Origin: an uncultured Ignavibacteria bacterium
GTDB taxonomy: Bacteria; Bacteroidota; Ignavibacteria; Kapaibacteriales; UBA2268
Reading direction: 5' to 3'
Length of the DNA stretch: 38,995 nucleotides
Assembly: GCA_903862655.1 (NCBI GenBank)
Contig: CAIOZA010000092.1
Location: 1-38,995 of the forward strand
A model generated the notes under the pieces. That model did not search any database, had not been told where the DNA came from, and saw nothing but the letters and a program-made list of their open reading frames with translations. The stretch's first letter is position 1, and each line of letters begins with the position of its first letter. This document shows, in pieces, positions 3,873-38,995 of this stretch. A program made the position numbers and the translations under genes.

Positions 3873-3920
3873 TTGTATATCCTATTAATATTATTTTCAA
3901 AATGTAGGTTTGATAATTAT

Positions 3921-5258: not shown

Positions 5259-5321
5259 TGATTAAAATCCTTGAATATATTGATATTGAAAATTCATTTT
5301 TTATAATTTAACTATTACGTT

Positions 5322-6971
5322 TCATTTTATTCTTTGTTTCATCCAGAGATTAATTAAAGCAAAAGCAGTTACTGTAAGACAAAGGTATGCCAGCCAATCG
5401 CCGAACTGTGTGTAAATACTCTTTTCTTTGAGGCAAACTATGTCTCCGCAAAATCCAATTGCTTTGTATTGATCTGCTCTGATTAAAGTTTTACCATTTG
5501 CTCCGATTATACCACTAACTCCGCTGTTGGCACTCCGTGCTACATAGCGTCTGTTCTCAATAGCCCGCATAACTGCTATCTGAAAATGTTGTTCGGGACC
5601 AAAAGTATAATCATACCATGCATCGTTAGTGATAATGGTTATGAAATCGGCATTCAGATTTACAAAATCTCTTACAAAACCGGGGAAGATTGATTCAATG
5701 CAGATAATTGGAGCAATTTTAGCCGTTTTACCATTATTCTCCATAGTAAGCAATTTTTGTTCTTTGCCTTTGTCCCAGGAAGATATTCCAACACCCCATT
5801 CAATCCATTTCCTAAGAAATGAAAAAACATCCATAAATGGAATTCTCTCACCGAATGGTGTTAACTTCATCTTATGGTAAATCTGAGGGTTGAGCCTGTC
5901 AGTTGGTGATGGATTGAGCAATAATGCTGAATTATATGAATCATAAACCATTGTCGTGTCATTCATATAGGCTTTTGCCGCAATCGATGGTTTCTCGCCC
6001 GGCTTATAGAAATACATATCGGCATAGCCGGTCAGGAGTGATGTTTTATAACCGTTAATCCAACCTTGCAATGGTGAGAAATCGTGATCTGCATTCATTC
6101 TAAGGCTTAGTTTTAATACAGCAGTTTCACTCCACAAGAATAAATCAGGTTTTGCTCCGGTCGATATAAGTGAATCCTGTAAATGCATGTGCCTGTAAAC
6201 CTGCTGCGAGGCACTCATTTCCCATTTCTGCCAGGGATTGATTGTTGGTTGAATAATTCCAACCTTGATGATTTGATTTCCGGAAATCAATTTCTGATGT
6301 TCGAATTGAGCAACCCGCATTGAACCATAGAGATATGGTACGATTATGAGAGCAATCAATGGTAAGATTAGTTTTTGGAAATTTCTGTTTTTGATCAGGA
6401 TATTTAGCTTCTTGGTTTCAGGTGTTAGTTCTCTTAGCAGGAATATGATTTTTAATAAAATGACATTAATTAGAGTAATAACAAATCCAACTCCATAAAC
6501 TCCGGCAATATCTGCAAATTGAACCCAATTCAGATTGAGTGTCTGTGTGTAGCCAATGTTTAACCAAGGATAGGCCAAATCACTGATACTATGCAGCCAT
6601 TCAAAACTGATCCAGATAAAAGGGAAGTACCATATAGCCTGATTAAAATCAATTCTTCTCCGTATTGTTCTATAAACAAGAAAAGGAAATAGAAAAAGGA
6701 ATGGATGAACTAAAGCAACAGCTAACCCGGAAATAAACAGATATGGATCAGTCTCAGCCTGCCAACTGCTTATCCACCAGTTTGTTCCTGCATGATAAAT
6801 GAAAAAGACAAGGTAAATCACAAGAAGTTGACGCTTATGTTGTTGTTCTAACCAGAATAAAAGTGGTACAAATGCAACAAAAGCAAGGTTCCCGAATGGC
6901 ATCGGTGGAAAAGAAAGTGCAAGAAGTAATCCAGTGACCAAAGCCAATAATATATTATTCTTTTTATCCAT
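5322..6971 (-). CDS. lnt: Apolipoprotein N-acyltransferase Lnt
   Basis: This 549-residue inner-membrane protein transfers a third acyl chain to the N-terminal cysteine of lipoproteins. The N-terminal half has several hydrophobic segments (starting LLALVTGLLLALSFPP), followed by a nitrilase-fold domain from about residue 235 and a final membrane segment near 525-545. The nitrilase triad is visible as E282 (LWSETAV), K369 (KMKLTPFGERIPF) and C424 (APIICIES). The length is close to that of the family. The ATG has no clear Shine-Dalgarno sequence. It sits 30 bp downstream of the amidotransferase gene and may be cotranscribed with it, although the functions are not obviously related. The lipoprotein gene at 9796 would be one natural substrate. 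Confidence 0.93.
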   Translation of the reverse strand: MDKKNNILLALVTGLLLALSFPPMPFGNLAFVAFVPLLFWLEQQHKRQLLVIYLVFFIYHAGTNWWISSWQAETDPYLFISGLAVALVHPFLFLFPFLVYRTIRRRIDFNQAIWYFPFIWISFEWLHSISDLAYPWLNIGYTQTLNLNWVQFADIAGVYGVGFVITLINVILLKIIFLLRELTPETKKLNILIKNRNFQKLILPLIALIIVPYLYGSMRVAQFEHQKLISGNQIIKVGIIQPTINPWQKWEMSASQQVYRHMHLQDSLISTGAKPDLFLWSETAVLKLSLRMNADHDFSPLQGWINGYKTSLLTGYADMYFYKPGEKPSIAAKAYMNDTTMVYDSYNSALLLNPSPTDRLNPQIYHKMKLTPFGERIPFMDVFSFLRKWIEWGVGISSWDKGKEQKLLTMENNGKTAKIAPIICIESIFPGFVRDFVNLNADFITIITNDAWYDYTFGPEQHFQIAVMRAIENRRYVARSANSGVSGIIGANGKTLIRADQYKAIGFCGDIVCLKEKSIYTQFGDWLAYLCLTVTAFALINLWMKQRIK

Positions 6972-7001
6972 TTTTTTGTTTTGGTTAGTTTCTGAATGAG
7001 T

Positions 7002-7688
7002 TTAAGTACCGGCAAAGGCATCGAGAACATCAGAGAGAAGTTCATTATTTAAGTTGCAGTTATTGACATGGGTCATTATATTTTCGCGATTCTGAACATA
7101 TAATTCAGGGTTTAAATCTGATTCATAATGGTTAAGCATTGATTCAATCATTTCCTCAGTGAATTCCATGTGAAATTGCATAGCGATTACATTCTCACCA
7201 AATGTATAACCCTGATTAATGCATCCATCAGATTCTGCGAATGGTATTGCACCTTCCGGCAAATCAAAAGTTTCCCCATGCCAATGGAAAGTGACAAGAG
7301 TAGGTGGGAGAAATTCAATTGCTTTATTTCCCTGGTGTTTTATCGATATTGGATACCAACCAATTTCCTGATGAATGCTGTAATTGACTTCAGCTCCCAA
7401 AGCCGATGAAATCAATTGACTTCCAAGGCAAATTCCAAAGACAAGTTTGCCGGCTATGATCGATTCTTTAATAAATACTTTTTCAGATATAAGCCAGGAG
7501 TACTTTGCTTCATCATTCACACTCATTGCACCGCCCATTATTAAAAGCAGATCGAAATCATCGATTGACGGCAAATGCTCGCCCAAATGAAGATGTGTAC
7601 AAGTGTGAGTGTGGCCATTGAGCGCAATCCAATCGCTAATTGCACCAATGCCTTCATAGGGTAAGTGTACCAGAGAATGTACTCTCAT
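7002..7688 (-). CDS. Class I glutamine amidotransferase (GMP synthase-like GATase domain protein)
   Basis: This 228-residue stand-alone class I glutamine amidotransferase has nucleophile C87 in FGICLGSQL and His/Glu partners H173 and E175 in MQFHMEFTEE. MGGAMSVND (51-59) is the oxyanion-strand segment common in YfeJ-like/GMP-synthase-like GATases. There is no synthetase domain and no partner synthetase nearby, so the acceptor of the released ammonia is unknown. Related stand-alone proteins include gamma-glutamyl hydrolase-like and defence-associated amidotransferases. AGGAAA precedes the ATG. The gene follows the YchF-like gene by 21 bp and probably shares its transcript. Confidence 0.85.
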   Translation of the reverse strand: MRVHSLVHLPYEGIGAISDWIALNGHTHTCTHLHLGEHLPSIDDFDLLLIMGGAMSVNDEAKYSWLISEKVFIKESIIAGKLVFGICLGSQLISSALGAEVNYSIHQEIGWYPISIKHQGNKAIEFLPPTLVTFHWHGETFDLPEGAIPFAESDGCINQGYTFGENVIAMQFHMEFTEEMIESMLNHYESDLNPELYVQNRENIMTHVNNCNLNNELLSDVLDAFAGT

Positions 7689-7709
7689 AATTTCCTGATA
7701 TTATTTGGA

Positions 7710-8795
7710 TTAGCCGTGTCTGACATGTAGTATATCTCCATCCTTAACTATGTATTCTTTTCCTTCTAGTCTGAAAACACCTTTTTCCTTGCACTTTGCA
7801 AAATTCTCATATTCGAAGAAATCCTTAAGTGCAACAACTTCAGCTCTGATGAATTTATTATAAAAATCGGTATGAATCACACCAGCAGCTTCCTGAGCTG
7901 TCATGCCCTTTTTGATTGTCCAAGCTCTGTTTTCATCTTCACCAACTGTGAAGAACGACTGCAAACCAAGCAGATCATAAGCACTTGAAATTAATCTGGA
8001 CAATGCTGAGTCTTTCAATCCATACTCAGCCATAAACATATCTTTTTCTTCTTGTTCAAGTTGAACTAGCTCCATCTCTATCTTTGCAAAGAAGGGCTCT
8101 ATTTTAATGTTTTTCCCTGAAAACTTCTGTTTGATATCGGCAACAATCGACTCACTGTTTTTGATGTCATTTTCATCTAGATTGAGAGCAATGAGTAGAG
8201 GCTTAACCGACAATGGCTGATAATTCCTGATATATTTGCTTTCTTCTTCTCCGAAGTCGAGCTCACGAAGCGGAGTTTCATTCTGCAATGCTTCGTTCCA
8301 GCGAACAACATATTCTTTCTCTTTTACAACTGTGTCCAGATTCTTATGTTTCAGAATATCCTTCTCGATTTTTTCCAGTCTGCTTTCGCAAAATGACATA
8401 TCAGCAAGAATAAATTCTTCTTCCAGTGTCCGGATATCCCTCATTAAGTCTATATTACCTTCAACATGAGGAACAGTCTCATCCCGGAAACCACGTACAA
8501 CATGGATGATCGCATCATTTGGTCTAACCTTGGTCAAAAATGTTGTATTAAACGCAGACTGATTATTTTCTCCCTTTTGTACACCAACCAAATCAAGTAT
8601 CTCAATTGTTGCATTGATTATTTTCTTAGGGTTGAACATCTCATTTAGCTTTTCAAGTCGAGCATCGGGAACCTTTACGATAGCCAGATTAGATTCTCTT
8701 TTTTGAAGAGCATTTACGTCGAGGTGAGTTTCAGTAAGTGTTTGGAAGAATGTAGTTTTACCTGAATATGGTAAGCCAACTATACCTATTTGCAT
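7710..8795 (-). CDS. ychF: YchF/OLA1-family GTP/ATP-binding protein
   Basis: This 361-residue protein has the YchF plan: a P-loop domain with an internal coiled coil (about 130-200) and a C-terminal TGS-type domain. The C-terminal stretch with RAWTIKKGMTAQEAAG, IHTDF and EYIVKDGDILHVRHG is diagnostic. The nucleotide motifs are G1 GLPYSGKTT (7-15), a G3-like DLVGVQKG, and a G4-like NLDE in place of NKxD, as expected for the ATP-preferring YchF family. The P-loop is unusual: YchF proteins normally read GLPNVGKST, but here it is PYSGKT. The protein is therefore either a divergent YchF or a paralogue; a second copy elsewhere cannot be excluded. It is first in a probable three-gene minus-strand run. 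Confidence 0.85.
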   Translation of the reverse strand: MQIGIVGLPYSGKTTFFQTLTETHLDVNALQKRESNLAIVKVPDARLEKLNEMFNPKKIINATIEILDLVGVQKGENNQSAFNTTFLTKVRPNDAIIHVVRGFRDETVPHVEGNIDLMRDIRTLEEEFILADMSFCESRLEKIEKDILKHKNLDTVVKEKEYVVRWNEALQNETPLRELDFGEEESKYIRNYQPLSVKPLLIALNLDENDIKNSESIVADIKQKFSGKNIKIEPFFAKIEMELVQLEQEEKDMFMAEYGLKDSALSRLISSAYDLLGLQSFFTVGEDENRAWTIKKGMTAQEAAGVIHTDFYNKFIRAEVVALKDFFEYENFAKCKEKGVFRLEGKEYIVKDGDILHVRHG

Positions 8796-9016
8796 ATTAT
8801 GCCTGTTTTATGATTATTCTATATTATGTCGTTTTTGAATCACAAAACTACGTAAAATATAGGACATAGAGAAAATAAGAATGTCAATAATGTCATTGGC
8901 ATAACAATTTTCTGACATGACTATGACATTTGTTTTACACAAGATTGACAATAGAATGACATAGCTGATTTCACTATCCACTAATTTTGCTCTTGAAATT
9001 AACAGCAAACTTCTTC

Positions 9017-9023
9017 AAGGAGA
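9017..9023 (+). promoter_or_regulatory. Ribosome binding site deciding the start at 9029
   Basis: AAGGAGA lies 5 nt before ATG 9029. It supports that ATG over an in-frame TTG at 8987, which has no such site. Confidence 0.75.
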
Positions 9024-9028
9024 CAAAA

Positions 9029-9760
9029 ATGAAAAAGACAGAATTAATAAAATCAAATCTTAAAAGAGCGATGATTTTTTCACTATTAATTATCATTTCA
9101 GTTTTAAATATTTATGGAAATGATAATCTTCAAAATTCTAATCAATTCTCGTTGGTTCAGCCCAAGTTTAATCAAGGTAAATACAGTATTGCATTAGCTT
9201 TGTCTCAAATGCCAAGAGTAATAACTGGTGAAGAATTAGCAGTTTTGCCAATGTTGGAGATTAATTATGATTTTAAACTACCTTCTCTAAAAATGAATAC
9301 AGGTTTTAGTTCATGTTATCTTATTAATGTTGCGTCAGCTGGTGCTGGTTTTGATTTTGACTTAAAAGGTATTGATCTAAATGCAGGAATTAATTGCAGA
9401 TATTGGTTTGGTAGTGCAAAGATGAAAGGATTCAATTCCTATGCATCAGGAATGATAGCTTCACCAAATGTTTCATTTGCATTCTATGCAATGGATATGT
9501 TTTTCACCACAACCGCAGAGGTTGATATATTCATCAGTAAAACATATAAATATGGTAAAGAAACATTCCACGATAATTTCATTCGCCAGCAAGGTGCAAC
9601 AATTTCATTGAAAATTGAAAGAGTAGTAAGTAATAACATTAACTTTTATATGTTAGCTAAACTTAGTTATACCCAACCAAGTTATCAAACATGGTTAGTA
9701 AATCCATCAAAATCATTGAATGTTTTGATACCAACATTATCACTTGGAATTAGCTTTTAA
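9029..9760 (+). CDS. Secreted beta-rich protein, probable outer-membrane barrel
   Basis: This is a 243-residue protein of unrecognised family. It begins MKKTELIKSNLKRAMIFSLL and has a hydrophobic signal segment (about 13-31). The mature part has alternating hydrophobic/polar strands rich in Asn, Ser, Phe and Tyr, with a final strand (VLIPTLSLGISF) ending in Phe. This is typical of outer-membrane barrels, but the fold is inferred. The start at 9029 is chosen for its AAGGAGA site. The gene is followed 35 bp later by the GDPD lipoprotein gene and then by another barrel-like gene, so the three probably form an operon working at the outer membrane. Confidence 0.75.
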   Translation: MKKTELIKSNLKRAMIFSLLIIISVLNIYGNDNLQNSNQFSLVQPKFNQGKYSIALALSQMPRVITGEELAVLPMLEINYDFKLPSLKMNTGFSSCYLINVASAGAGFDFDLKGIDLNAGINCRYWFGSAKMKGFNSYASGMIASPNVSFAFYAMDMFFTTTAEVDIFISKTYKYGKETFHDNFIRQQGATISLKIERVVSNNINFYMLAKLSYTQPSYQTWLVNPSKSLNVLIPTLSLGISF

Positions 9761-26284: not shown

Positions 26285-27352
26285 TCAATTATTTTCTGCT
26301 AAATTAAATTTTAAATTTACTAGTGCCCCACCATTTGCTTCATTATTTGAGATTGACATTTTAAATCCCTGTGCATCCATAATGACTTTTGCCGCTGCTA
26401 GGCTTAGACCAACAACATTTTGTTTTTCATCCATAGCCTCAGAACTAAAAAACTTTAGCAAATTAGCTAGTTGAATGCCCGAAAAACCAGAACCTTGATC
26501 TGTAATTGATAAATCAATCATTCCTGAACTTTTGATGAAATCAATAGTCAGCTCTCCACCCTCAGGTGAAAACTTAACTGCATTATCGATAATGGAAATG
26601 AAAACAAAACCCATTAAATCGGGATCAGCAGAAATATTAAGATTAAAAAGCTCATCAGAATACTTCAGTTTTATATTTTTTTTGATAATTAGCGAATTTT
26701 TAGCATCTAGAGATGATTTAAGAAATTCACCGATAGAAATCGATTTTAAACCAAACCTGTATTTTTCACTTTTTAACTGCGAAAGCAAATGGGCTATATC
26801 AGCAATTTTTTTCATCTTCATGAATTCCTGCTGAATAAATGGAGCCTGCATTTGCATATTCAATAATTTGAACAATTTGTTCTTAGAAGCGTCAAGTTCT
26901 TTCAATTTGACATAAGCTTCCTCAATTGCTTTCTGTTTTAGTTTAAGTTCTTTTTGTGTGTTGTAAAGTGTGATAGCTTTTTTAACTGATAATTCAAATT
27001 GATTTAGTTCCCATGGTTTTGTCATAAAGATGAACAGATTAGCATTGTTGATTGCGTTCTGAACGCCTTCGAATGTTGCCTGACCTGTAAGCATTACTGA
27101 CAATATTTCCGGATAATCATTATGAATTATCTCAAGCAATTCATCACCTTTCATCCCGGGCATAATGTAATCAGTAACAATAACAGGGACATCAATCCCT
27201 CTTTTTATCAAATCATTCAAGACTACTAATGCTTCTTCTCCACTCTCGCAAAATTCTAATATCATTGAATCTTTAAAAATAACTTGAAGAGCAAGCTTAA
27301 GTGCTTGAAGTATTAAAATTTCGTCATCAACAACTATAATGGCTTGCTTCAT
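26285..27352 (-). CDS. Receiver-HATPase hybrid with degenerate H-box
   Basis: This 355-residue protein has an N-terminal receiver (D9/D10, phospho-acceptor D61 in VTDYIMPG, K112 in TKPW), a coiled coil (about 125-158), a dimerisation-like helix pair (about 158-205) and a HATPase domain (N-box IIDNAVKFSPEGG, G1 DQGSGF, a weak GLSLAAAK box). The H-box should read like F-S-I-I-A-H-D-L-x-x-P-F but reads FKLLNMQMQAPF, placing M166 where the phosphorylated His belongs. It therefore cannot autophosphorylate by the usual route and may be a pseudokinase, a phosphatase or an allosteric partner. It follows the next gene by 21 bp in an operon. The receivers of the two share the LTGQAT-EGV-NAIN-A pattern. 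Confidence 0.88.
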   Translation of the reverse strand: MKQAIIVVDDEILILQALKLALQVIFKDSMILEFCESGEEALVVLNDLIKRGIDVPVIVTDYIMPGMKGDELLEIIHNDYPEILSVMLTGQATFEGVQNAINNANLFIFMTKPWELNQFELSVKKAITLYNTQKELKLKQKAIEEAYVKLKELDASKNKLFKLLNMQMQAPFIQQEFMKMKKIADIAHLLSQLKSEKYRFGLKSISIGEFLKSSLDAKNSLIIKKNIKLKYSDELFNLNISADPDLMGFVFISIIDNAVKFSPEGGELTIDFIKSSGMIDLSITDQGSGFSGIQLANLLKFFSSEAMDEKQNVVGLSLAAAKVIMDAQGFKMSISNNEANGGALVNLKFNLAENN

Positions 27353-27373
27353 AAAATAACAGTGATAGTAATA

Positions 27374-28714
27374 TTAATTAAATTTGTTAATTATAATGGG
27401 TTCAATAATATTGACATAGCTTCTTGAACGATTGAGAGCCTTGAGTAATTCTTCAGAAATGGTCTGACCTGATGGAATTAGTAGTATACCATTATTATCG
27501 TAAACGTTTTCAGCTACAGTCATACCGGCTTGCAAATTTTTTAACTTTATGGCTTTTCGCGCTTTTCCCTGATATGATTTTGTCTTTGCCTCCTTTGGCT
27601 TGGAGATTATCGGCAATTTAAACACTTCTTCCTTGACAAAGATGTTGCTGATGTTGTAAGTGTCCAAGTTCTTTTGTAACTCATCAATTACAGGCTCATC
27701 AACAATTGTTGAACTGGTTGTTATTGGCAGAACATTACCTTTGATCAATTGGTCAACTTCAAGTACTAGTTTAAATATATCGCAGATTAATTTTCCAATC
27801 TCATCTTTATCCTCACTGAAAATCGATTTAGCAGAATCAGATAATTGCAAATATGATGAAATATTATTCAAAATGGACTGTAGATGGGAACTTGTCAATA
27901 TGTTCTGATAAGAACTTTTCCCTATTACTTCTATCTCCAATAGATCTTTTTCGTTAAATTCTAATTCCTTTAGAATTTTTTCTGGTATATTTAAATTCTG
28001 ATTTACTAACTTATAAAGAGAAACAATAACACCTAAAAGAGTTATTATTCTCTTGGGAGGTGGAAAATCATTAATGACGATAGTCGCATATTTATATATT
28101 CTCTTGAATTTTTGCATTAAATCTTCATTGATCTGATAGGAAGTCGAAAGAAAAGATACTAATCCCAAATAGAGAGTATCCTGAAAATGGTAGAAGAAAG
28201 AATCCACTATTTGATCTAAGGGTCTATTGAATTCATTCGATTGGTCATTGATTTGATAGTCAATCTTATTGTTTACTTCACGAATTTGTCTATGTTGAAT
28301 CTCAATTAATCTTTCCTTGTAATAAATTCTAAATGCTTCAGTAATAGTTAACTCCAAGTCCAGATTATCCCATGGCTTAACAATAAACCGATAAAGTTCA
28401 GCCCAATTAATTGCATTACGCACACCTTCGAGAGTTGCTTGCCCTGTTAATAGAATTTTTTTTGTCTTTGGTAGTAACTTATGTGCTTCACGTAGAAAGA
28501 CATCACCCTTCATCACGGGCATAATATAATCACTAATTATTACAGGAATATCATTTCCATTTTTCTTATAATGTTTTATTAACTCTAGAGCTTCAGGTCC
28601 TGATTCAGCAATAATAGTATAAACTTTCTCATTGAAGAAAGAATTAATAGTCTCCCTTAAACTGTTCAAAAGGAAGATCTCATCGTCAACGCATATGATT
28701 ACTGGCTTTTTCAT
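27374..28714 (-). CDS. Response regulator with HD-GYP-associated C-terminal segment but no HD domain
   Basis: This 446-residue protein has a receiver (about 1-125) with D10/D11, phospho-acceptor D62 (ISDYIMPV) and K113 (FIVKPWD). The middle (about 130-370) is helical and unrecognised. The C terminus, AIKLKNLQAGMTVAENVYDNNGILLIPSG, looks like the short beta module that precedes HD-GYP phosphodiesterase domains ('L--GM-La-dv----G-lLl--G'). No HD or GYP motif follows. The receiver is of the type with 'TGQA...AIN...KPW', often found fused to cyclic-nucleotide or phosphodiesterase outputs. It is the first gene of a two-gene operon with the degenerate kinase. The output function is unknown. Confidence 0.8.
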   Translation of the reverse strand: MKKPVIICVDDEIFLLNSLRETINSFFNEKVYTIIAESGPEALELIKHYKKNGNDIPVIISDYIMPVMKGDVFLREAHKLLPKTKKILLTGQATLEGVRNAINWAELYRFIVKPWDNLDLELTITEAFRIYYKERLIEIQHRQIREVNNKIDYQINDQSNEFNRPLDQIVDSFFYHFQDTLYLGLVSFLSTSYQINEDLMQKFKRIYKYATIVINDFPPPKRIITLLGVIVSLYKLVNQNLNIPEKILKELEFNEKDLLEIEVIGKSSYQNILTSSHLQSILNNISSYLQLSDSAKSIFSEDKDEIGKLICDIFKLVLEVDQLIKGNVLPITTSSTIVDEPVIDELQKNLDTYNISNIFVKEEVFKLPIISKPKEAKTKSYQGKARKAIKLKNLQAGMTVAENVYDNNGILLIPSGQTISEELLKALNRSRSYVNIIEPIIINKFN

Positions 28715-29004: not shown

Positions 29005-29394
29005 TTGGCAAAAATTAAATCACATAATGTTGGCGAATCTTTAAATCGATTGAAAAAATTCCTCAAAATCCGATCTGACAGAGATTTATCAATTTTTCTG
29101 GGATTGAGTGAAAACACAATTTCAATGTGGAGGCAAAGATATTCATTTGACTTCGATTTAATTCTAGAAAAGTGCCCTGATATTAGCTTAGATTTTTTAT
29201 TAACAGGAGTTCCCCCTGAAACAATGAGTGAACGCAATAATATTCTCAATTTCTACCAGGTTCCTCTTTTGCAGATGGATTCGGATTATGTAGCTAAAAT
29301 GGGTTATAAAGTAGAAAAAATTGATCCCAGCGAACGAAAAATCTTGGAACTTGAGTCTGAGATAAAGAAAATATATGAATTATTGAAAAAATAA
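29005..29394 (+). CDS. CI-repressor-type helix-turn-helix regulator
   Basis: This 129-residue protein has an N-terminal helix-turn-helix (about 10-75; RDLSIFLGLSENTISMWRQR) typical of the phage CI repressor family. The following ISLDFLLTGVPP segment is also common after that domain. No LexA/CI-type autocleavage domain is present; the C terminus is a short helix (ERKILELESEIKKIYELLKK) that may dimerise. The only in-frame start before the conserved part is TTG 29005, without a clear ribosome site, so expression may be low or the start misjudged. Such short CI-like proteins are frequent chromosomal regulators in Bacteroidota. Its target may be itself, the divergent regulator operon or the giant gene 0.8 kb downstream. 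Confidence 0.8.
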   Translation: MAKIKSHNVGESLNRLKKFLKIRSDRDLSIFLGLSENTISMWRQRYSFDFDLILEKCPDISLDFLLTGVPPETMSERNNILNFYQVPLLQMDSDYVAKMGYKVEKIDPSERKILELESEIKKIYELLKK

Positions 29395-29793: not shown

Positions 29794-29915
29794 CAGCCGC
29801 TACACAAGACCTTGACGTTTTGCGGCTCTAAACCAAAAAAAACGTTATAAGGCTAAAAAAACGTGATGCGATATAAAGGAGTGTGGCACACACTCCTTTA
29901 TATAATTCAAAAAAT
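29794..29915 (+). repeat. Hairpin-rich direct repeat, copy 1
   Basis: This 122-bp element is repeated 182 bp downstream with about 95% identity. It contains an AGCCGC/GCGGCT inverted repeat around 20 nt, an AACGTT palindrome in an A-rich middle, and a perfect 15-bp terminal hairpin ATATAAAGGAGTGTG-GCA-CACACTCCTTTATAT (about 29871-29903). The hairpin has no T-tract, so it is not a standard terminator. An AAAGGAG sequence is buried in the stem. It may be a structured RNA, a regulatory leader or a small non-coding mobile repeat. Confidence 0.7.
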
Positions 29916-29975: not shown

Positions 29976-30098
29976 CAGCCGCTACACAAGACCTTGACGT
30001 TTTGCGGCTCTAAACCTAAAAAAACGTTATAAGGCTAAAAAAACCGTGATGCGATATAAAGGAGTGCGACACACACTCCTTTATATATTCCAAAAAAT
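29976..30098 (+). repeat. Hairpin-rich direct repeat, copy 2
   Basis: The second copy ends 116 bp before the giant gene. The AGCCGC/GCGGCT stem and the A-rich centre are conserved. The terminal hairpin has GTGCG in place of GTGTG on its left arm, giving one mismatch in an otherwise kept stem. The two copies are separated by 60 bp of unrelated AT-rich DNA. Confidence 0.7.
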
Positions 30099-30214
30099 GA
30101 AAATTTAATAGTTATTTATCACAAAGGTAAATTAAGTTTTTCGCAAAACAGCTCAGCAATTAAAAAATAAATTGATAAACGAAATTATAAGTTATAAATT
30201 TGAATGGAGCAGTT

Positions 30215-33200
30215 ATGTCGTATTTCAAGAAAATTATTGTTAATTTCTTTTTACTTGTCATTTCTTCTATTCTTCTTTTCTCCCAAGTACCGAATACTTT
30301 AAATTATCAGGGCTGGTTAACTGATGGTAAGGGGAATGGAATAGCCGATGGGCAATTCAATATAACCATAAAGTTATACAAAAAGGCAAATGATATCACG
30401 CCTGTTTACACAGAAGTCATTATGGCAGTGCAAACATCTGGTGGTTACTTCAATCTGGTAATAGGTAAAGTGCAACCTTTGGACATTCCATTTAACGAAC
30501 CTTACTGGTTAGGAACTACAGTAGGTAATGCAACGGAAATGACCCCGAGGACAGAATTCACTGCTGTACCATACGCATTAAGAGCAAAAACATCGGATCA
30601 TGCCTTAATTGCTGATGCATTTTCGAACTCAGCAACAGGATTTGTCAAAAGCATAAATGCGCTTGATGGTAATGTAACGATAGAAGGTGGTCCCGGGCTA
30701 AAAGTAGCTAATAGTGGAAGTACAATAACAATTGGATTAGCACCTGAATCAATTATAGCCGGTGGAGACTTGATGGGCACATATCCTAATCCAACCATTA
30801 AGGACTCTAAAGTAACTACAGTAAAACTAGCAGACGGAGCAGTAACAAACTCAAAAGTTTCGGATGTTGCCTGGTCCAAAATCACTGGAACACCTGTATC
30901 GATGGCTCCAACTGGAAATGCCGGTGGAGACTTGACTGGCACATATCCTAATCCAATTTTAGACAATGGAAAAGTCACATCATCAAAGATTGCTGACGGA
31001 GCAATTACCGATTCTAAGATTACAGATGTCAGTTGGTCAAAAATAATGGGAGCACCATCGTCATTTGAGCCATCAGGAAATGCCGGTGGAGATTTAAGCG
31101 GATCTTATCCAAATCCATTTTTAGGGATTGGAGCAGTTACAAGTAATAAGATAGCAGACGGCGCAATCACTAATACAAAGGTAACTGATGTAGCATGGGG
31201 TAAGATAACAGGTACACCAACTTCAATGACACCAAGTGGCTCAGCCGGGGGTGATTTAACAGGAACCTATCCCAATCCAATAATTGGCGATGGTAACGTA
31301 ACTACAACAAAAATACTTGATGCTAATATTACGACTTTAAAGATAGCAGACGGCGCAATCACTAATGTAAAGGTAACTGATGTTGCATGGAGCAAGATAA
31401 CAGGCACGCCAAGCTCTATGTCACCAAGTGGTGCAGCCGGGGGTGATTTAACAGGAACCTATCCCAATCCAATAATTGGCGATGGTAAAGTAAGTACCGC
31501 TAAAATACTTGATGCTAATGTTACTACTTTAAAGATAGCAGACGGTGCAATCACTAATGTAAAAGTAGCTGATGTTGCTTGGAGCAAAATAACAGGCACA
31601 CCAAGTTCAATGACACCAAGTGGCTCAGCCGGGGGAGATTTAACAGGAACCTATCCTAATCCAACAATAGGAAATTCCAAAGTAACAACAAATAATATAG
31701 TTGACGGCGCAATCACTAATACAAAGGTAACTGATGTAGCATGGGACAAGATAACAGGCACGCCAAGCTCAATGTCACCAAGTGGCACAGCCGGAGGTGA
31801 TTTATCAGGAACCTATCCCAATCCAATAATTGGCGATGGTAAAGTAAGTACAACTAAAATACTTGATGCCAATATTACTACTTTAAAGATAGCAGACGGT
31901 GCAATCACTAATGCAAAAGTAGCTGATGTTGCTTGGAGCAAAATAACAGGCACACCAAGTTCAATGTCACCAAGTGGCACAGCCGGAGGTGATTTATCAG
32001 GAACCTATCCTAATCCAACAATAGGAAATTCCAAAGTAACAACAAATAATATAGTTGACGGCGCAATCACTAATGCAAAGGTAACTGATGTAGCATGGGA
32101 CAAGATAACAGGGACGCCAAGCTCAATGTCACCAAGTGGTGCAGCCGGGGGTGATTTAACAGGAACCTATCCCAATCCAATAATTGGCGATGGTAACGTA
32201 ACAACAACAAAAATACTTGATGCTAATATTACTACTTTAAAGATAGCAGACGGCGCAATCACTAATGCAAAGGTAACTGATGTAGCATGGGACAAGATAA
32301 CAGGCACGCCAAGCTCTATGTCACCAAGTGGTACAGCCGGGGGTGATTTAACAGGAACATATCCCAGCCCAACAATTGGAAGTGGGAAAGTTATTACTGT
32401 TAAAATAGCAGATAATGCTGTTACTACAGCAAAAATAGCTGACGGAAATATTAATGCATCTAAGATTGCTTCAAATGCGGTAACAACTGTGAAGATATTG
32501 GATGCTAATGTTACTACAGCTAAACTTGCCAATGGAGCTGTTACCGATGATAAAATATCAGATGTTGCATGGAGTAAAATTTCTGGTGCCCCTTCAGCAT
32601 TAGCTCCAACTGGAGCTGCAGGTGGAGATCTAACAGGTACCTATCCTAATCCAACAATAACTAGTAATGCAGTAATTACTTCTAAAATAGCAGATGCCAA
32701 TATTACAACAGCTAAACTTGCTGATGCTGCTGTAACCAATGCTAAGGTTAACGATGTAGCCTGGTCAAAGATAACGGGTGCTCCTTCAGCATTAGCTCCA
32801 ACTGGAGCTGCAGGTGGAGATCTAACAGGCAACTATCCAAATCCAACAATAACTAGTAATGCCGTTACTACAGCAAAAATAGCAGATGCCAATATAACTG
32901 AATCTAAAATTGCTTCAAATGCGGTAACAACTGTGAAAATCCTTGACGCTAACGTCACAACCGCTAAGCTTGCCGATGGTGCAATAACCAATGCAAAGGT
33001 TAACGATGTTGCCTGGTCAAAGATAACAGGTGCGCCATCATCATCAACACCAAGCGGATCTGCAGGTGGGGATCTATCAGGAACTTATCCTAATCCAACA
33101 ATAGCCACAGATGCAGTAACAACAACAAAGATTCTAAATGCTAATGTCACAGCAGCAAAACTTGCAGCTACAGCCGTAACTCCTGGTGCTTATGGTTCAA

Positions 33201-36200
33201 CCACACAGGTAGGAACATTTACTGTAGATCAGCAAGGAAGACTCACGTCTGCGGCTAACTTAACACTAAGCGGCACAGCACCGGGTGGAGCTGCAGGTGG
33301 TGATCTAACAGGTACCTATCCTAATCCAACAATAAATAGTAATGCTGTTACTACAGCAAAAATACTTGATGCTAACGTTACTACAGCAAAAATAGCAGAT
33401 GCCAATATAACTGCATCTAAGATTGCTTCAAATGCGATAACAACTGTGAAAATACTTGATGCTAACGTCACAACAGCTAAGCTTGCTGATGGTGCTGTAA
33501 CCAATGCAAAGGTTAACGATGTCGCATGGTCAAAGATAACAGGTGCGCCATCATCAGCACCACCAAGCGGAGCAGCAGGTGGAGATTTGACAGGCACCTA
33601 TCCTAACCCAACAATAAATAGTAATGCTGTAACTACAGCAAAAATACTGGACGCTAATGTCACAACAGCAAAAATCGCTGATGCAAACATTACTTCATCA
33701 AAGATTGCTTCAGATGCTGTAACTACAGCAAAAATACTTGACGCTAACGTCACAACAGCAAAAATAGCAGATGCCAATATAACTGCATCTAAGATTGCTT
33801 CCGATGCTGTGATAACAACAAAAATACTAGACGCTAATGTCACAACAGCAAAAATAGCAGATGCCAATATAACTGCATCTAAGATTGCTTCCGATGCTGT
33901 AACTACAGCAAAAATACTTGACGCTAACGTCACAACAGCAAAAATAGCAGATGCCAATATAACTGCATCTAAGATTGCTTCCGATGCTGTAACAACAGTG
34001 AAGATTCTAAATGCAAATGTTACAGCCGCAAAACTTGCAGCTACAGCCGTAACTCCTGGTGATTATGGTTCAACAACTCAGGTAGGAACATTTACGGTAG
34101 ATCAGCAAGGAAGACTCACCGCTGCTGCTAACGTTACAATCAGCGGAATAGCTCCAAGCGGTGCTGCCGGTGGGGATCTCTCCGGTAATTATCCTAATCC
34201 ATTAATTACTGACAATGCAGTTACAACAGTTAAAATTAACGAAGAAGCAGTTACAACCGTAAAAATTAAAAATAAAGCAGTTACAATTGACAAAATTAAT
34301 AATGGAGCACCTAATCAAGTTATGGTTACCACAGGTGGTGAAGGTAATTATCATACGGTGTGGTCAGATGATCTTCTACTTCCAGGCAGTCTATATGTGC
34401 AAAACACATCAACTTTAGTAGGAGGAATTACTACTTTTAACCGATCATATATGTCTGATCTAAATATTGGATCTCCTGTTGGCAGTACCAAGAAATATGC
34501 TTTTTATGGTGAGGAAGGAGCAAATCAGGGTAAAATAGATTTATGGGGTGCTTCTAGTAACGAATCAAATTACACAACATTATCTGTTGGTACCCCTACA
34601 GCGCATAATGCAATTAATTTCCCTAATGCAAGCGGTACAGTTGCTCTTCTCAGTGATCTTACATCTGCTGCTTCGATCAATGGTCTCAGCGATGGAATAT
34701 CTGATGGTACAACTACAGTTTTTCTAGGTACAAATTCAGGAACTAGTAATACAACCGGATCACATAATTTAGGAGTTGGCATTTCTTCTTTAACTTCAAA
34801 TACAAGTGGTTCCTACAATACTGCTATCGGAGATCGCGCCCTTTATAATACTTTAGGTTCTTCTAATATTGCTATCGGAGCTTATGCCGGATATGATCAG
34901 ACAACTGGCTCAGGCAATATTTATATTGATAACGGAGGTGTAGCCGGAGAATCGCGTGTGATCAAAATCGGAACAGACCAGACAAAAGCATATATCAAAG
35001 GTATAAATAACCAGACAATAGCAACTGCAGCCAACGTATATGTTGATGCCAACGGTCAGCTGTTCAAATCAACAGTAGCCAGTCCTTCCTACACAGCAGG
35101 CACCGGAATAAATATTACATCCGGAGCAATAGGGATAACCGAGGGCGGAGTTACAGCAACACAACTAGCAGACGGAGCAGTAACAGCAGTCAAGATGGCA
35201 TCAACAGCCGTAACACCAGCAGCTTATGGAACAGCAACGCAGGTAGGGACATTTACAGTAGATCAGCAAGGAAGACTCACAGTAGCTGCTAACGTGACAA
35301 TCAGCGGAACATTACCGGGTGGAGCAGCAGGTGGAGATTTAACAGGAACATATCCAAATCCAGCAATAAATAGTAATGCTGTAACAACAGCCAAGATTCT
35401 GGATGCTAATGTAACAAATGCAAAGCTAGCAAACAGTTCACTAACGGTAACAGCCGGCACAGGCATGACCGGTGGTGGTTCAGTAGCTCTCGGTGCAACA
35501 ACAACAATAGGTATTGCCGCAAGCGGAGTAGGAACAACACAACTAGCAGACGGAGCAGTAACAGCAGCAAAGATGGCATCAAACGGTGCAGCAGACGGAC
35601 AGATTCTTAAATGGAATACAGGAACAACAACCTGGGTAGCCGCAGATGACGCTGGGATTAGTACTATCGATGGACTTGTCGATGGTAAGTCTGATGGAGA
35701 TTCTTATATGTTTCTTGGTAATAATGCAGGATATAGTAATACCGGAGATTTTAATACCGGAGTCGGCGTTAATTCTTTATTTAGAAATACAACCGGAACA
35801 GAGAATACGGCTATTGGTGTTAATTCACTAAATGCGAATACAATCGGAAACAGCAATACAGCGTCAGGTGTATCAGCTCTTTTGTATAATACTACAGGCT
35901 CTAACAATACTGCTGTCGGTATAAATTCACTAAATTCGAATACAACCGGTTCCTATAATATTGCTATCGGAAATTCTTCCGGAGTTAATCAGACAACCGG
36001 CTCAAGAAATATATATATTGGTAACGGAGGTAATACAATAGAATCAGACGTGATCAAAATCGGAGAAGATCAGAGTAAAACATATATAGCAGGAATAGCT
36101 GGCACAACTAGTGAATCTGCAGCCAACGTATATATTGATGCCAACGGTCAGCTGTTCAAATCAACAGCAGCAGGTTCTTCCTACACAGCAGGCACCGGAA

Positions 36201-38995
36201 TAAATATTACATCCGGAGCAATAGGCATAACCGATGGAGCAGTTGGAGCAACACAACTAGGAACCGGAGCAGTAACAAATGTTAAAGTAACTGATGTAGC
36301 ATGGGGCAAGATTACAGGAGCACCGACTACATATGCACCAAGTGGAGATGCAGGCGGAGATTTAACTGGAACATATCCAAGTCCAACAATAGGAAATTTA
36401 AAAGTAACAACAGCAACAATAGCAGATGACGCTGTTACAACATTAAAGATTCTAAATGCCAATGTAACAGAAGGCAAACTAGCAGACGGAGCAGTAACAG
36501 CAGCAAAGATGGCATCAACAGCCGTAACACCGGAAGCTTATGGATCAGCAACACAGGTAGGAACATTTACAGTAGATCAGCAAGGAAGACTCACAGCCGC
36601 TGCTAACGTAACAATAAGCGGAACAGTACCGGGTGGAGCAGCAGGTGGAGATTTAACAGGAACATATCCAAGTCCAACAATAGCCGCAGACGCAGTAACA
36701 ACAGTAAAGATTCTAAATGCAAATGTAACAAATGCAAAGCTAGCAAACAGCTCACTAACGGTAACAGCCGGCACAGGCATGACCGGTGGTGGTACAGTAG
36801 CTCTCGGTTCAACAACAACAATAGGTATTGCAGCAGGCGGAGTAGGCACAACTGAACTAGCAGATGATGCAGTCACAGCAGCAAAACTAGCAGCGGGAAC
36901 AACAAGCGGACAGATACTTAAATGGAATGGATCAGCCTGGGCATTATCAGCAGACGCTGGAACAGCCTATACAGCAGGCACCGGAATTAATCTAGATGGA
37001 AATGCAATAGGCATAACCGCTGGAGCAGTTACAGCAACACAACTAGCAGACGGAGCAGTAACAGCAGCCAAGATCGGTCAAAACTCTGCAACAAACGGAC
37101 AGATTCTTAAATGGAATGGAACAACTTGGGTAGCCGCAGATGACGCTGGGATTAGTACTATCGATGGACTCACAGACGGAAAAACCAACAGCTCATCAGT
37201 GTTCCTGGGTGCTAATGCAGGTGCAAATGATTATGACAACGGCGAAGGCGGAAATTTTGGAACAGGCGTAGGTCAGTATGCATTAAACTCTAACACTTTT
37301 GGCGTCGGAAATACAGCAATCGGCTGGAGTTCCTTATATAGCAACACAACAGGAGATGATAACGCAGCAACCGGAGCAAATGCCTTATATTATAACACAA
37401 CAGGTGATAAAAATGTTGCCAGTGGAGATAATTCCTTACATGCGAACACAGCAGGAAACAATAATACAGCAATCGGCTCTAATTCATTATATAGAAACAC
37501 CACAGGGAACGACAATATTGCTCTTGGAAAACAAGCTGGATACAATCAGACAACCGGCTCAGGCAATATATATATTGATAACTCCGGTGTAGCTGCAGAA
37601 TCAAGCGTAATCAAAATCGGAACAAGCCAGACAAAAGCATATATAGCAGGAATAACCGGCACAACTAGTGCAACTGCAGCCAACGTATATATTGATGCCA
37701 ATGGTCAGCTGTTCAAATCAACAGTTTCCGGAAGCGGTGCAACTAATATCGATGGACTCAGCGATGGAATATCTGATGGTACAACTACAGTTTTTCTAGG
37801 TACTAATTCTGGAGCAAATAATACCGGCTCAGGTAATACCGGAGTTGGAATTTCTTCTTTAAATGCGAATACAAGCGGCTATGATAATACGGCCATTGGT
37901 ACTACTGCTTTACGTGCAAATACTACCGGTAGTGATAATACAGCGATTGGTCTTAATGCACTTTATTCAAATACAACCGGATCCAACAACACATCCATTG
38001 GAGTGTGGTCACTTCGTGACAACACAACAGGAGAATACAACACAGCTACAGGTCTTCTTTCGCTAGCCAAAAATACAACAGGAACCTCCAATTCCGCATT
38101 TGGTGAGGAAAGCTTAAAGGAAAATTTAGCTGGAATTCGTAATACTGGAACAGGGGCCCAGGCTTTATACGCAAATACATCAGGAAATTATAATACTGGT
38201 AATGGTGTTGGTGCACTTAGCACTAATACGACAGGATCGTACAATATTGCACTTGGATATCAAGCCGGACTAAATCAGACAACCGGCTCAGGCAATATTT
38301 ATATTGATAACGGAGGTGTAGCTGCAGAATCGAACGTAATCAAAATAGGAACAAACCAGACAAAAGCATACATCAAAGGTATAAATGACCAGACAATAGC
38401 AACTGCAGCCAATGTATATGTTGATGCCAACGGTCAGCTGTTCAAATCAACAGCAGCCAGTTCTTCCTACACAGCAGGCACCGGAATAAATCTAGCCGGA
38501 GATACAATAGGCATAACCGTCGGCGGAGTTACAGCAACCCAACTAGCCACAGACGCAGTAACAGCAGATAAGCTAGTAACTGGAGCAGTAACAGAAGGCA
38601 AACTGGCATCAAACGCCGTAACTCAAGCTAAAATTGCAGATGGCAATGTAATAACAGCCAAACTAGCTAATGGAGCAGTAACAGCAGCCAAGATCGGTCA
38701 AAACTCTGCAACAAACGGACAGATTCTTAAATGGAATGGGACAACCTGGGTAGCCGCAGATGATAATAACAACGGAACAGCCTACACAGCAGGTACCGGA
38801 ATAAATCTAGCCGGAGATACAATAGGCATAACCGCTGGCGGAGTTACAGCAACCCAACTAGCATCAGACGCAGTCACAACAGATAAGATAGCATCAGACG
38901 CAGTCACAACAGCAAAGATTCTAAATGCAAACGTCACAACGGGCAAACTAGCAGACGGAGCAGTAACATCAGTCAAGATGGCGCAAAACTCAGCA
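30215..38995 (+). CDS. Giant modular repeat surface protein, 3' end outside window
   Basis: One frame stays open from ATG 30215 to the last base (2927 codons, no stop). A GGAG site lies 5 nt upstream. Residues 1-24 are a signal peptide (MSYFKKIIVNFFLLVISS...LLFSQ). About 25-125 is the surface domain that starts VPNTLNYQGWLTD and ends TAVPYALRAK, a common N-terminal domain of FCB-group surface proteins. From about 180 on there are about 19 GGDL[TS]G-YP-P modules joined by linkers of the 'VTTAKILDANV' and 'VAWSKITGTPSS' types. Four blocks of NTAIG-type repeats follow, like YadA head repeats, with cassettes such as TFTVDQQGRLTAAAN, GQILKWNGTTWVAAD and DANGQLFKST. It is probably an elongated, trimeric fibre or adhesin, as in phage tail-fibre-like proteins. 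A C-terminal S74 chaperone or sorting domain may lie beyond the window. Confidence 0.9.
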   Translation, partial: MSYFKKIIVNFFLLVISSILLFSQVPNTLNYQGWLTDGKGNGIADGQFNITIKLYKKANDITPVYTEVIMAVQTSGGYFNLVIGKVQPLDIPFNEPYWLGTTVGNATEMTPRTEFTAVPYALRAKTSDHALIADAFSNSATGFVKSINALDGNVTIEGGPGLKVANSGSTITIGLAPESIIAGGDLMGTYPNPTIKDSKVTTVKLADGAVTNSKVSDVAWSKITGTPVSMAPTGNAGGDLTGTYPNPILDNGKVTSSKIADGAITDSKITDVSWSKIMGAPSSFEPSGNAGGDLSGSYPNPFLGIGAVTSNKIADGAITNTKVTDVAWGKITGTPTSMTPSGSAGGDLTGTYPNPIIGDGNVTTTKILDANITTLKIADGAITNVKVTDVAWSKITGTPSSMSPSGAAGGDLTGTYPNPIIGDGKVSTAKILDANVTTLKIADGAITNVKVADVAWSKITGTPSSMTPSGSAGGDLTGTYPNPTIGNSKVTTNNIVDGAITNTKVTDVAWDKITGTPSSMSPSGTAGGDLSGTYPNPIIGDGKVSTTKILDANITTLKIADGAITNAKVADVAWSKITGTPSSMSPSGTAGGDLSGTYPNPTIGNSKVTTNNIVDGAITNAKVTDVAWDKITGTPSSMSPSGAAGGDLTGTYPNPIIGDGNVTTTKILDANITTLKIADGAITNAKVTDVAWDKITGTPSSMSPSGTAGGDLTGTYPSPTIGSGKVITVKIADNAVTTAKIADGNINASKIASNAVTTVKILDANVTTAKLANGAVTDDKISDVAWSKISGAPSALAPTGAAGGDLTGTYPNPTITSNAVITSKIADANITTAKLADAAVTNAKVNDVAWSKITGAPSALAPTGAAGGDLTGNYPNPTITSNAVTTAKIADANITESKIASNAVTTVKILDANVTTAKLADGAITNAKVNDVAWSKITGAPSSSTPSGSAGGDLSGTYPNPTIATDAVTTTKILNANVTAAKLAATAVTPGAYGSTTQVGTFTVDQQGRLTSAANLTLSGTAPGGAAGGDLTGTYPNPTINSNAVTTAKILDANVTTAKIADANITASKIASNAITTVKILDANVTTAKLADGAVTNAKVNDVAWSKITGAPSSAPPSGAAGGDLTGTYPNPTINSNAVTTAKILDANVTTAKIADANITSSKIASDAVTTAKILDANVTTAKIADANITASKIASDAVITTKILDANVTTAKIADANITASKIASDAVTTAKILDANVTTAKIADANITASKIASDAVTTVKILNANVTAAKLAATAVTPGDYGSTTQVGTFTVDQQGRLTAAANVTISGIAPSGAAGGDLSGNYPNPLITDNAVTTVKINEEAVTTVKIKNKAVTIDKINNGAPNQVMVTTGGEGNYHTVWSDDLLLPGSLYVQNTSTLVGGITTFNRSYMSDLNIGSPVGSTKKYAFYGEEGANQGKIDLWGASSNESNYTTLSVGTPTAHNAINFPNASGTVALLSDLTSAASINGLSDGISDGTTTVFLGTNSGTSNTTGSHNLGVGISSLTSNTSGSYNTAIGDRALYNTLGSSNIAIGAYAGYDQTTGSGNIYIDNGGVAGESRVIKIGTDQTKAYIKGINNQTIATAANVYVDANGQLFKSTVASPSYTAGTGINITSGAIGITEGGVTATQLADGAVTAVKMASTAVTPAAYGTATQVGTFTVDQQGRLTVAANVTISGTLPGGAAGGDLTGTYPNPAINSNAVTTAKILDANVTNAKLANSSLTVTAGTGMTGGGSVALGATTTIGIAASGVGTTQLADGAVTAAKMASNGAADGQILKWNTGTTTWVAADDAGISTIDGLVDGKSDGDSYMFLGNNAGYSNTGDFNTGVGVNSLFRNTTGTENTAIGVNSLNANTIGNSNTASGVSALLYNTTGSNNTAVGINSLNSNTTGSYNIAIGNSSGVNQTTGSRNIYIGNGGNTIESDVIKIGEDQSKTYIAGIAGTTSESAANVYIDANGQLFKSTAAGSSYTAGTGINITSGAIGITDGAVGATQLGTGAVTNVKVTDVAWGKITGAPTTYAPSGDAGGDLTGTYPSPTIGNLKVTTATIADDAVTTLKILNANVTEGKLADGAVTAAKMASTAVTPEAYGSATQVGTFTVDQQGRLTAAANVTISGTVPGGAAGGDLTGTYPSPTIAADAVTTVKILNANVTNAKLANSSLTVTAGTGMTGGGTVALGSTTTIGIAAGGVGTTELADDAVTAAKLAAGTTSGQILKWNGSAWALSADAGTAYTAGTGINLDGNAIGITAGAVTATQLADGAVTAAKIGQNSATNGQILKWNGTTWVAADDAGISTIDGLTDGKTNSSSVFLGANAGANDYDNGEGGNFGTGVGQYALNSNTFGVGNTAIGWSSLYSNTTGDDNAATGANALYYNTTGDKNVASGDNSLHANTAGNNNTAIGSNSLYRNTTGNDNIALGKQAGYNQTTGSGNIYIDNSGVAAESSVIKIGTSQTKAYIAGITGTTSATAANVYIDANGQLFKSTVSGSGATNIDGLSDGISDGTTTVFLGTNSGANNTGSGNTGVGISSLNANTSGYDNTAIGTTALRANTTGSDNTAIGLNALYSNTTGSNNTSIGVWSLRDNTTGEYNTATGLLSLAKNTTGTSNSAFGEESLKENLAGIRNTGTGAQALYANTSGNYNTGNGVGALSTNTTGSYNIALGYQAGLNQTTGSGNIYIDNGGVAAESNVIKIGTNQTKAYIKGINDQTIATAANVYVDANGQLFKSTAASSSYTAGTGINLAGDTIGITVGGVTATQLATDAVTADKLVTGAVTEGKLASNAVTQAKIADGNVITAKLANGAVTAAKIGQNSATNGQILKWNGTTWVAADDNNNGTAYTAGTGINLAGDTIGITAGGVTATQLASDAVTTDKIASDAVTTAKILNANVTTGKLADGAVTSVKMAQNSA
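31310..32400 (+). repeat. 354-bp higher-order repeat
   Basis: Two GGDL modules form a 354-bp (118-codon) unit. Landmarks such as AAAATACTTGATGC recur at 31502, 31856 and 32210, and the stretch starting AGTAACAACAAATAATATAG recurs at 31681 and 32035, always 354 bp apart. Units are nearly identical over long stretches. Confidence 0.85.
33631..33990 (+). repeat. 90-bp tandem repeat, four units
   Basis: Units run at 33631-33720, 33721-33810, 33811-33900 and 33901-33990. The second and fourth are identical over all 90 bases, the third differs at a few positions and the first is more diverged. Each codes for 30 residues (TTAKILDANVTTAKIADANI and following KIASDAV). Confidence 0.9.
34726..34905 (+). 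repeat. NTAIG head-like repeat block 1
   Basis: Short block with LGVGISSLTSNTSGSYNTAI-type units of about 14 residues. It is followed by a GSGNIYIDNGG segment and the first DANGQLFKS cassette near 35045. Confidence 0.75.
35704..35990 (+). repeat. NTAIG head-like repeat block 2
   Basis: About six units of the type NTTG-NTAIG-NSL-A, ending in an IAIGNSSGVNQTTGS closing turn and followed by NIYIGNGG. Confidence 0.75.
37195..37560 (+). repeat. NTAIG head-like repeat block 3
   Basis: About seven units with NTTGDDNAATGANALYYN-like sequence, ending in ALGKQAGYNQTTGS and followed by NIYIDNSG. Confidence 0.75.
37795..38290 (+). repeat. NTAIG head-like repeat block 4
   Basis: This is the longest block, about nine units such as NTTGSDNTAIGLNALYSN. 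It closes with ALGYQAGLNQTTGS and is followed by NIYIDNGG and another DANGQLFKS cassette near 38435. Confidence 0.75.

What the first reader, a model, noticed from the sequence alone, without database searches (positions are those of the whole stretch)
30215..38995. Giant open frame of at least 2927 codons running off the window
The largest gene here has no stop to the last base. It combines a signal peptide, an FCB-type N-terminal surface domain, about 19 GGDL-type modules and four YadA-head-like blocks. The combination suggests a very long trimeric fibre or adhesin of which only the N-terminal part is seen. The function and anchoring domain are unknown.
Basis: partly seen in the sequence, partly recalled or inferred. 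Interest (0 to 1): 0.75.

Follow-up and report, generated by a model that had tools for sequence, protein, structure and literature searches.

The report
Giant phage-like surface fibre of bacteria
A bacterium encodes a very long secreted fibre that starts with a relative of the module found on the surface fibres of the predator Bdellovibrio and continues with phage-like repeats and a self-cutting assembly domain, which hints that such fibres are a general bacterial tool for touching surfaces and not only a predator's weapon.

Summary
The frame is real: 30215-38995, 2927 codons, no stop, 19 GGDL modules and four repeat blocks, as described. It is open only because the contig (C92) ends inside a repeat. 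Contig C107 of the same genome begins with a matching C-terminal end: 384 aa with a fifth block, a Peptidase_S74 self-cleaving chaperone with its Ser/Lys pair, a coiled-coil-like tail and a stop. Similarity, frame and module arithmetic make one gene of about 3322 codons likely; the join itself was not seen. The N-domain is a distant homologue of the N-domain of Bdellovibrio mosaic adhesive trimer (MAT) fibres (NCBIfam NF053851, window E 2.7e-8, below its curated cut-off; 91 of 91 relatives hit it). It occurs in 102 of 123 genomes searched in the order and was not found in phage or plasmid records, whereas the decamer shaft repeats and S74 are shared with phages. Best reading: a secreted, trimeric, S74-matured, MAT-like adhesive fibre with its N-end at the cell. 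Trimerisation, anchor, export route and ligand remain inferred or unknown. "YadA-head-like" found no support. A new variant of a known kind: notable for its size, its five tandem blocks and its setting outside known predators.

The parts
30215..38995 (+). N-terminal 2927 codons of the giant fibre gene, running off the contig
   Evidence: purifying pattern among modules
30206..30209 (+). GGAG, likely ribosome-binding site 5 bases before ATG 30215
   Evidence: sequence; inference
30215..30283 (+). putative signal peptide, residues 1-23
   Evidence: by eye; 79 of 80 testable relatives have a strongly hydrophobic stretch at the same place (10 of 90 too short to test)
30284..30595 (+). N-domain, distant homologue of the Bdellovibrio MAT N-domain; predicted beta-sandwich
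30752..34666 (+). shaft: first 16 of the 19 GGDL modules with interleaved 10-residue repeats (DUF5907-like)
   Evidence: DUF5907 76.6 bits against cut-off 27
34667..35089 (+). repeat block 1 (17-residue NTAIG-type repeats plus a conserved end ...VYVDANGQLFKST)
35657..36184 (+). repeat block 2
37142..37738 (+). repeat block 3
37739..38470 (+). repeat block 4, directly after block 3
38471..38995 (+). linker and decamer repeats at the contig end; the first 152 bases of contig C107 are 96% identical to 38742-38893
   Evidence: C-terminal partner C107:1-1157 + (outside the window)

Best explanation
A secreted MAT-like fibre. The signal peptide takes the chain to the periplasm. Three chains are thought to intertwine along the GGDL/decamer shaft and the repeat blocks. 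The C-terminal S74 domain acts as an intramolecular chaperone that sets the register of the trimer and then cuts itself off at its serine, leaving a mature fibre of about 3175 residues per chain. By scaling from Bd3182 (922 aa, about 550 A) this would be roughly 0.2 micrometre long. The N-domain stays at the cell surface and holds the fibre; the repeat blocks carried along and at the tip of the fibre bind glycans or other cells or surfaces. Shown here: the domains, their order, the homologies and the S/K pair. Inferred: the C92-C107 join, trimerisation, cleavage, surface display, binding. Not known: how the fibre crosses the outer membrane and what the N-domain holds on to.
For: N-domain: NCBIfam NF053851 Bdello_MAT_N hit by the window (E 2.7e-8, 33.8 bits) and by 91 of 91 aligned N-domains, best 7.1e-15, also 5 places in the own genome at E <= 0.001. 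C-end: Peptidase_S74 23.8 bits against cut-off 22 on C107; C107 has S-S-A-R-Y-K, and in 32 related S74 stretches Ser is kept in all 30 that cover it and Lys in 32 of 32. Whole-gene precedent: two intact paralogues in the same genome (frames of 890 and 1231 aa) run signal peptide, N-domain, GGDL module, repeat block, S74, coiled coil. Join: C107 nt 1-152 is 96% and nt 40-265 91% identical to the last kilobase of the window, against one 45-base match to the C46 paralogues; two internal copies of the junction both show 31 bases between the matching end points, which is 1 mod 3, as needed to stay in frame. Phage kinship of shaft and tip. Experimental model: MAT protein Bd3182 self-cleaves at its S74 serine and forms a trimeric beta-helix (PMC10769870, sections 10, 11 and 16 read).
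Against: The window's N-domain is below the curated cut-off of NF053851 (33.8 against 60 bits). The MAT capping-loop motif given in the paper is absent from the window protein, C107 and both paralogues. S74 on C107 is only just over Pfam's cut-off, and the order-wide rerun listed only 2 own-genome S74 matches, without C107. No assembly evidence joins C92 and C107: there is no suffix-prefix overlap, and one more contig end, C66, carries an N-domain start, though of the C46 type (98.6% over 141 bases). The longest decamer run also resembles designed monomeric pentapeptide-type solenoids (5dra, E 1.1e-6), so part of the shaft need not be a trimer. No export or anchoring device was identified.
Confidence: 0.68

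Rival explanations
1. A prophage or other phage tail-fibre gene that lies in the bacterial chromosome and acts on a virion.
For: The decamer shaft, the repeat blocks and S74 match phage families (PHROGs tail fibre families to E 3.4e-106; S74 region in 303 of 50,697 phage records; 18 of 29 and 582 of 600 candidate viral stretches). A CI-repressor-type HTH gene lies upstream (29005-29394).
Against: There is a signal peptide and an N-domain found in 0 of 50,697 phage records, 0 of 29 candidate viral stretches and 0 of 1072 ORFs in 98 viral loci. In 10 neighbouring proteins Pfam shows two-component, sigma-54 activator, DUF4402 and SdrD_B families but no virion genes. 3 of 77 viral decamer-repeat ORFs with a complete 5' end pass a crude hydrophobicity test.
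Confidence: 0.06
2. A classical trimeric autotransporter adhesin of the YadA type.
For: NTAIG-like repeats recall YadA heads; a long repetitive Cys-free chain with signal peptide.
Against: No YadA_head match for the protein or 24 block sequences; the C107 end matched only Peptidase_S74 in Pfam at E <= 10, no YadA anchor; 17-residue period.
Confidence: 0.03
3. A surface or matrix scaffold protein, perhaps an S-layer-like or biofilm fibre, with no specific ligand, whose N-domain is a generic packing module.
For: Very low-complexity composition (T 15%, A 14%, G 12.5%) and recent tandem module duplication would suit a spacer or matrix role. N-domains also sit on proteins with quite different C-termini.
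Against: Self-cleaving S74 ends are, in the cases known, used to mature receptor-binding fibres; close homology of the N-domain is to prey-contact fibres.
Confidence: 0.18
4. C92 and C107 are two different genes: the giant has another, unseen end, and C107 belongs to another gene such as the one that begins on C66.
For: No overlap between the contigs; C66 ends in another N-domain start.
Against: C107's repeats are of the C92 type and not the C46/C66 type; frame and spacing fit; paralogous response-regulator gene pairs stand in the same order on the outer side of both contig ends.
Confidence: 0.1

Closest known systems
Bdellovibrio bacteriovorus mosaic adhesive trimer (MAT) proteins, S74 group, e.g. 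Bd3182 (PMC10769870)
   Same: [quoted passage not shown] relatives of the N-domain carry varied tips (S74, Collar, Peptidase_G2, C1q), as MATs do.
   Different: About 3322 codons against about 1000 aa in MATs; five tandem repeat blocks; S-S-x-x-x-K instead of S-D-x-x-x-K; no capping-loop motif; N-domain below the curated Bdello cut-off; the host belongs to an order that I do not know to contain predators.
Phage tail fibres/tailspikes with Peptidase_S74 (K1F endosialidase, T5 L-shaped fibre)
   Same: S74 region, decamer repeats and repeat blocks recur in phages.
   Different: Phage fibres dock to a virion and lack a signal peptide and the N-domain.
Tail-fibre-like giants of a sister genome (G034: 4489, 3768, 3584 and 3109 aa frames)
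   Same: Same N-domain, GGDL modules, an end that reads as S74 plus coiled coil.
   Different: They go on into a T9SS-type tail (over the TIGR04183 cut-off in 1 of 4, below it or not listed in 3); the present protein stops after the coiled coil.
YadA-type trimeric autotransporters
   Same: Superficial likeness of the NTAIG repeats; long fibre.
   Different: No YadA_head or YadA_anchor match; other repeat period.

Membership tests
[quoted passage not shown]
   Signal peptide by eye; N-domain hits NF053851 at E 2.7e-8 and 91 of 91 relatives hit it; predicted beta-sandwich, mean pLDDT 77.
MAT superfamily (Bdellovibrio) | curated NF053851 cut-off (60 bits), i.e. the Bdellovibrio subfamily itself | tested here: not met
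   33.8 bits for the window; 0 of 5 own-genome matches over the cut-off. So filed as MAT-like, not as a Bdellovibrio MAT.
MAT superfamily, S74 group | C-terminal S74 domain with the catalytic S(D)xxxK | tested here: met
   On C107, 23.8 bits against 22, S-S-A-R-Y-K; depends on the C92-C107 join. The Asp is Ser, as in 6 of 30 aligned relatives.
MAT superfamily | capping-loop motif V-G-G/N-aromatic-x-x-P-x-x-x-L | tested here: not met
   0 matches in the window protein, C107 and two paralogues.
MAT superfamily | trimeric intertwined beta-helix | not testable with these tools
   Only single-chain prediction was available.
MAT superfamily | surface display and adhesion | not testable with these tools
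   Needs an experiment.
Peptidase_S74 proteins | Pfam PF13884 over its gathering score | tested here: met
   23.8, 25.6 and 27.3 bits in three searches of the C107 end, cut-off 22.
Phage tail fibre | virion-docking N-terminus and virion genes around | tested here: not met
   N-domain in 0 of 50,697 phage records; no virion family in 10 neighbours.
YadA-type trimeric autotransporter | YadA_head repeats | tested here: not met
   Not among families at E <= 1 for the protein and 24 block sequences.
YadA-type trimeric autotransporter | C-terminal YadA membrane anchor | tested here: not met
   Only Peptidase_S74 at E <= 10 on the C107 end.
T9SS cargo | C-terminal T9SS sorting domain | tested here: not met
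   No NCBIfam family on the C107 end at E <= 0.1, although the genome has SprA (881.5 bits) and at least 150 Por_Secre_tail matches (150 of 321 candidates scored).
eCIS tail fibre | eBAP1-5 baseplate domain in an eCIS locus | not tested
   No eBAP model at hand; the signal peptide and neighbours speak against it.

The most novel reading that the evidence does not exclude
MAT-type fibres are not a predator's invention. They are one display system, a signal peptide plus N-domain as a universal surface dock carrying interchangeable phage-derived shafts and self-maturing tips, spread over the FCB group and beyond. This lineage has stretched it into giants with several binding blocks per chain, and a sister lineage has wired it to T9SS so that S74 self-cleavage would separate the folded fibre from its own export tail.
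Probability: 0.4. Interest if true: 0.72.

Novelty: new variant of a known kind. Interest (0 to 1): 0.5.

Why it matters
The anchor of MAT fibres is an open question in the Bdellovibrio work (its authors say that the surface element bound by the N-domain awaits identification, PMC10769870 section 16). If the same N-domain is used by FCB-type bacteria with no known predatory habit, its partner can be sought by comparing genomes that have it (102 of 123 in this order) with the 21 in which it was not found, and MAT repertoires lose their value as a marker of predation. It also shows phage-type fibre parts taken over wholesale for a bacterial surface, in chains above 3000 residues.

Tried and rejected
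YadA head: rejected as a label. The single-chain model of block 4 had mean pLDDT 64.6; Foldseek gave no match at E <= 0.001, and VIA-align's best, Z 13.1 to an alginate epimerase beta-helix with many alike, is a common arrangement for repeats; no YadA chain was listed, which proves nothing. N-domain fold: no Foldseek match at E <= 0.001, best VIA-align Z 7.2 over 83 residues (4ojc), i.e. generic Ig-like; no sequence relative in the PDB (best E 0.28); nothing convincing in Pfam or PHROGs.

I first thought GGDL modules were as common in phages as the decamers. In 98 viral loci fetched for other queries the strict motif was in 0, against 34 of 90 and 20 of 29 N-domain ORFs, but a dedicated scan found 17 relatives in 31 candidate stretches of viral contigs and 1 of 50,697 phage records. 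So GGDL modules are rare in, not absent from, viral records.

My elimination argument (three S74 ends, three GGDL-type N-ends) was weakened on checking: contig C66 also ends in an N-domain start, of the C46 type. The join therefore rests more on similarity, frame and spacing. No direct comparison with Bdellovibrio sequences was possible: the one genome-contig scan returned none of them among its 79 loci, and it was capped at the best 80 of 128. Rfam gave nothing over threshold in the window.

Literature: search listings only, except PMC10769870 (outline, passages, sections 10, 11, 16) and PMC12923769 (passages). In this library 'mosaic adhesive trimer' with 'Bacteroidota' gave 0 papers; supplementary tables of PMC10769870, which list homologues in other bacteria, were not readable, so the wider spread may already be noted there.

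Full report
Observation. The frame is as reported: 2927 codons from ATG 30215 to the contig end with no stop, in a stretch whose other forward frames hold 268 and 239 stops and whose base shuffles never gave more than 214 open codons in 200 trials. Nineteen GGDL modules and four repeat blocks are there. Module copies differ mostly at silent positions (171 of 171 ungapped pairs, median dN/dS 0.31), so the frame is a maintained gene with recent tandem duplications (354-base unit, 2.9 copies at 92% match).

The missing end. The window is all of contig C92 of a 4.07 Mb genome in 148 contigs. Contig C107 opens with 384 codons of the same kind: decamer repeats, a fifth block, Peptidase_S74, coiled-coil-like tail, stop. 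Its first 152 bases are 96% identical to bases within the last 260 of the window, and it shares 91% over 226 bases with the last kilobase; the C46 paralogues share only one 45-base match. At two internal copies of the same junction, 31 bases lie between the points where C92 stops and C107 starts, which keeps the frame. The sum would be 2927 + 11 + 384 = 3322 codons. The own genome has three S74 ends (the order-wide rerun, listed two) and seven N-domain matches: C92, two intact S74 paralogues on C46, C139 (1405 aa frame, no S74 match), two on C124, and a contig-end start on C66 of the C46 type. Paralogous response-regulator pairs stand on the far sides of both contig ends (window 26285-28714; C107 2535-5015; 36% and 30% identity), which fits but does not prove adjacency.

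Anatomy. Signal peptide (by eye); N-domain (about 30284-30595); GGDL/decamer shaft; blocks 1-4; then, on C107, block 5 and S74. The blocks consist of 17-residue repeats and end in the same phrase, VYVDANGQLFKST or near it, that in C107 directly precedes the S74 serine. The internal blocks thus look like copies of the fibre tip without the chaperone: five tips in a row. The window part of the mature chain has no cysteine. Pfam sees DUF5907 (76.6 bits, 10 stretches) and, below its cut-off, Pentapeptide_4; the best PDB match of the decamers is a designed pentapeptide-type solenoid (E 1.1e-6).

N-domain. In 40 relatives 33 genomes had it; with a profile, 102 of 123 genomes of the order, up to 11 copies each. 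A genome-contig scan gave 79 loci (best 80 of 128) in records titled Bacteroidetes, Ignavibacteria, Kapabacteria, KSB1, Calditrichota, Gemmatimonadota, Eisenbacteria, Chitinivibrionia, Poribacteria, Armatimonadetes, Neomarinimicrobiota and others; most are metagenome bins, so single odd titles need care. All 91 aligned members hit NCBIfam NF053851, the N-domain model of Bdellovibrio mosaic adhesive trimers (window E 2.7e-8; best 7.1e-15; E limit 0.1), though the window stays under its curated cut-off (33.8 against 60 bits). It was found in no phage record (0 of 50,697), no plasmid record (0 of 72,556), and no viral contig by the two ways tried. The model is a beta-sandwich with only generic structural matches, in line with the paper's remark that the MAT N-domain has no PDB homologue.

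Mosaic tips. Of 90 N-domain ORFs, 70 with a readable C-terminus were scanned (19 ran off the locus, 1 had unknown residues): 18 matched Peptidase_S74, 2 Collar, 2 Peptidase_G2 and 1 C1q at E <= 0.01 (whose count of 19 for S74 includes C107). Matching rows by hand gives at least 23 frames in the order with both N-domain and S74 (the lists are cut). Frames above 2500 aa with the N-domain number at least 11 in 8 other genomes, so giants recur in this order.

Phage parts. The catalytic serine is kept in 30 of 30 covered and lysine in 32 of 32 aligned S74 stretches. So the gene is a chimera: a bacterial secretion-and-docking end on a phage-type fibre.

Mechanism. From MAT work (PMC10769870): an S74 MAT self-cleaves at its serine and yields a trimeric beta-helical fibre on the cell surface; the N-domain is taken to sit at the cell. 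I infer the same here. Export is open: the genome has T9SS but the protein has no sorting tail. In sister genome G034, four giants read as S74 plus coiled coil plus T9SS-type tail (sequence; Pfam S74 in the 3768 aa frame, 25.7 bits; TIGR04183 over cut-off in 1 of 4). There, cleavage by S74 would free the fibre from its export tail. This is a reading of sequence, untested.

Verdict. A real, very large MAT-like fibre gene broken by assembly; kind known since 2024, variant new in size, block number and setting.

Noticed in passing
window 29794-29906 and 29976-30089: Two copies, 182 bases apart, of an element just upstream of the giant gene that folds strongly as RNA (-35 kcal/mol, z -5.2) and ends in a 15-bp perfect hairpin; the DNA search of the own genome found only these two copies and their own palindromes, and Rfam had no match.
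   Followed up: partly
L133, L134, L135, L137 (genome G034): Giant N-domain fibres whose C-terminus reads as S74-like, coiled coil, then a T9SS-type tail: an autoprotease placed before the export signal.
   Followed up: partly
window 26285-28714 and C107 (L009) 2535-5015: Paralogous pairs of response-regulator genes in the same order and orientation on both sides of the giant gene, suggesting a local duplication around it.
   Followed up: partly
C124 (L023) 3278-6182: Two neighbouring N-domain proteins with C-termini that look like the Fibrobacter succinogenes major paralogous domain (name recalled, not tested).
   Followed up: no
window 29005-29394: HTH gene of the phage CI-repressor type between the two-component genes and the giant gene.
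   Followed up: no
C139 (L022) 4823-9040: 1405-aa frame with the N-domain and a long decamer array but no S74 match in the own-genome search: an NS74-like sister in the same genome.
   Followed up: no
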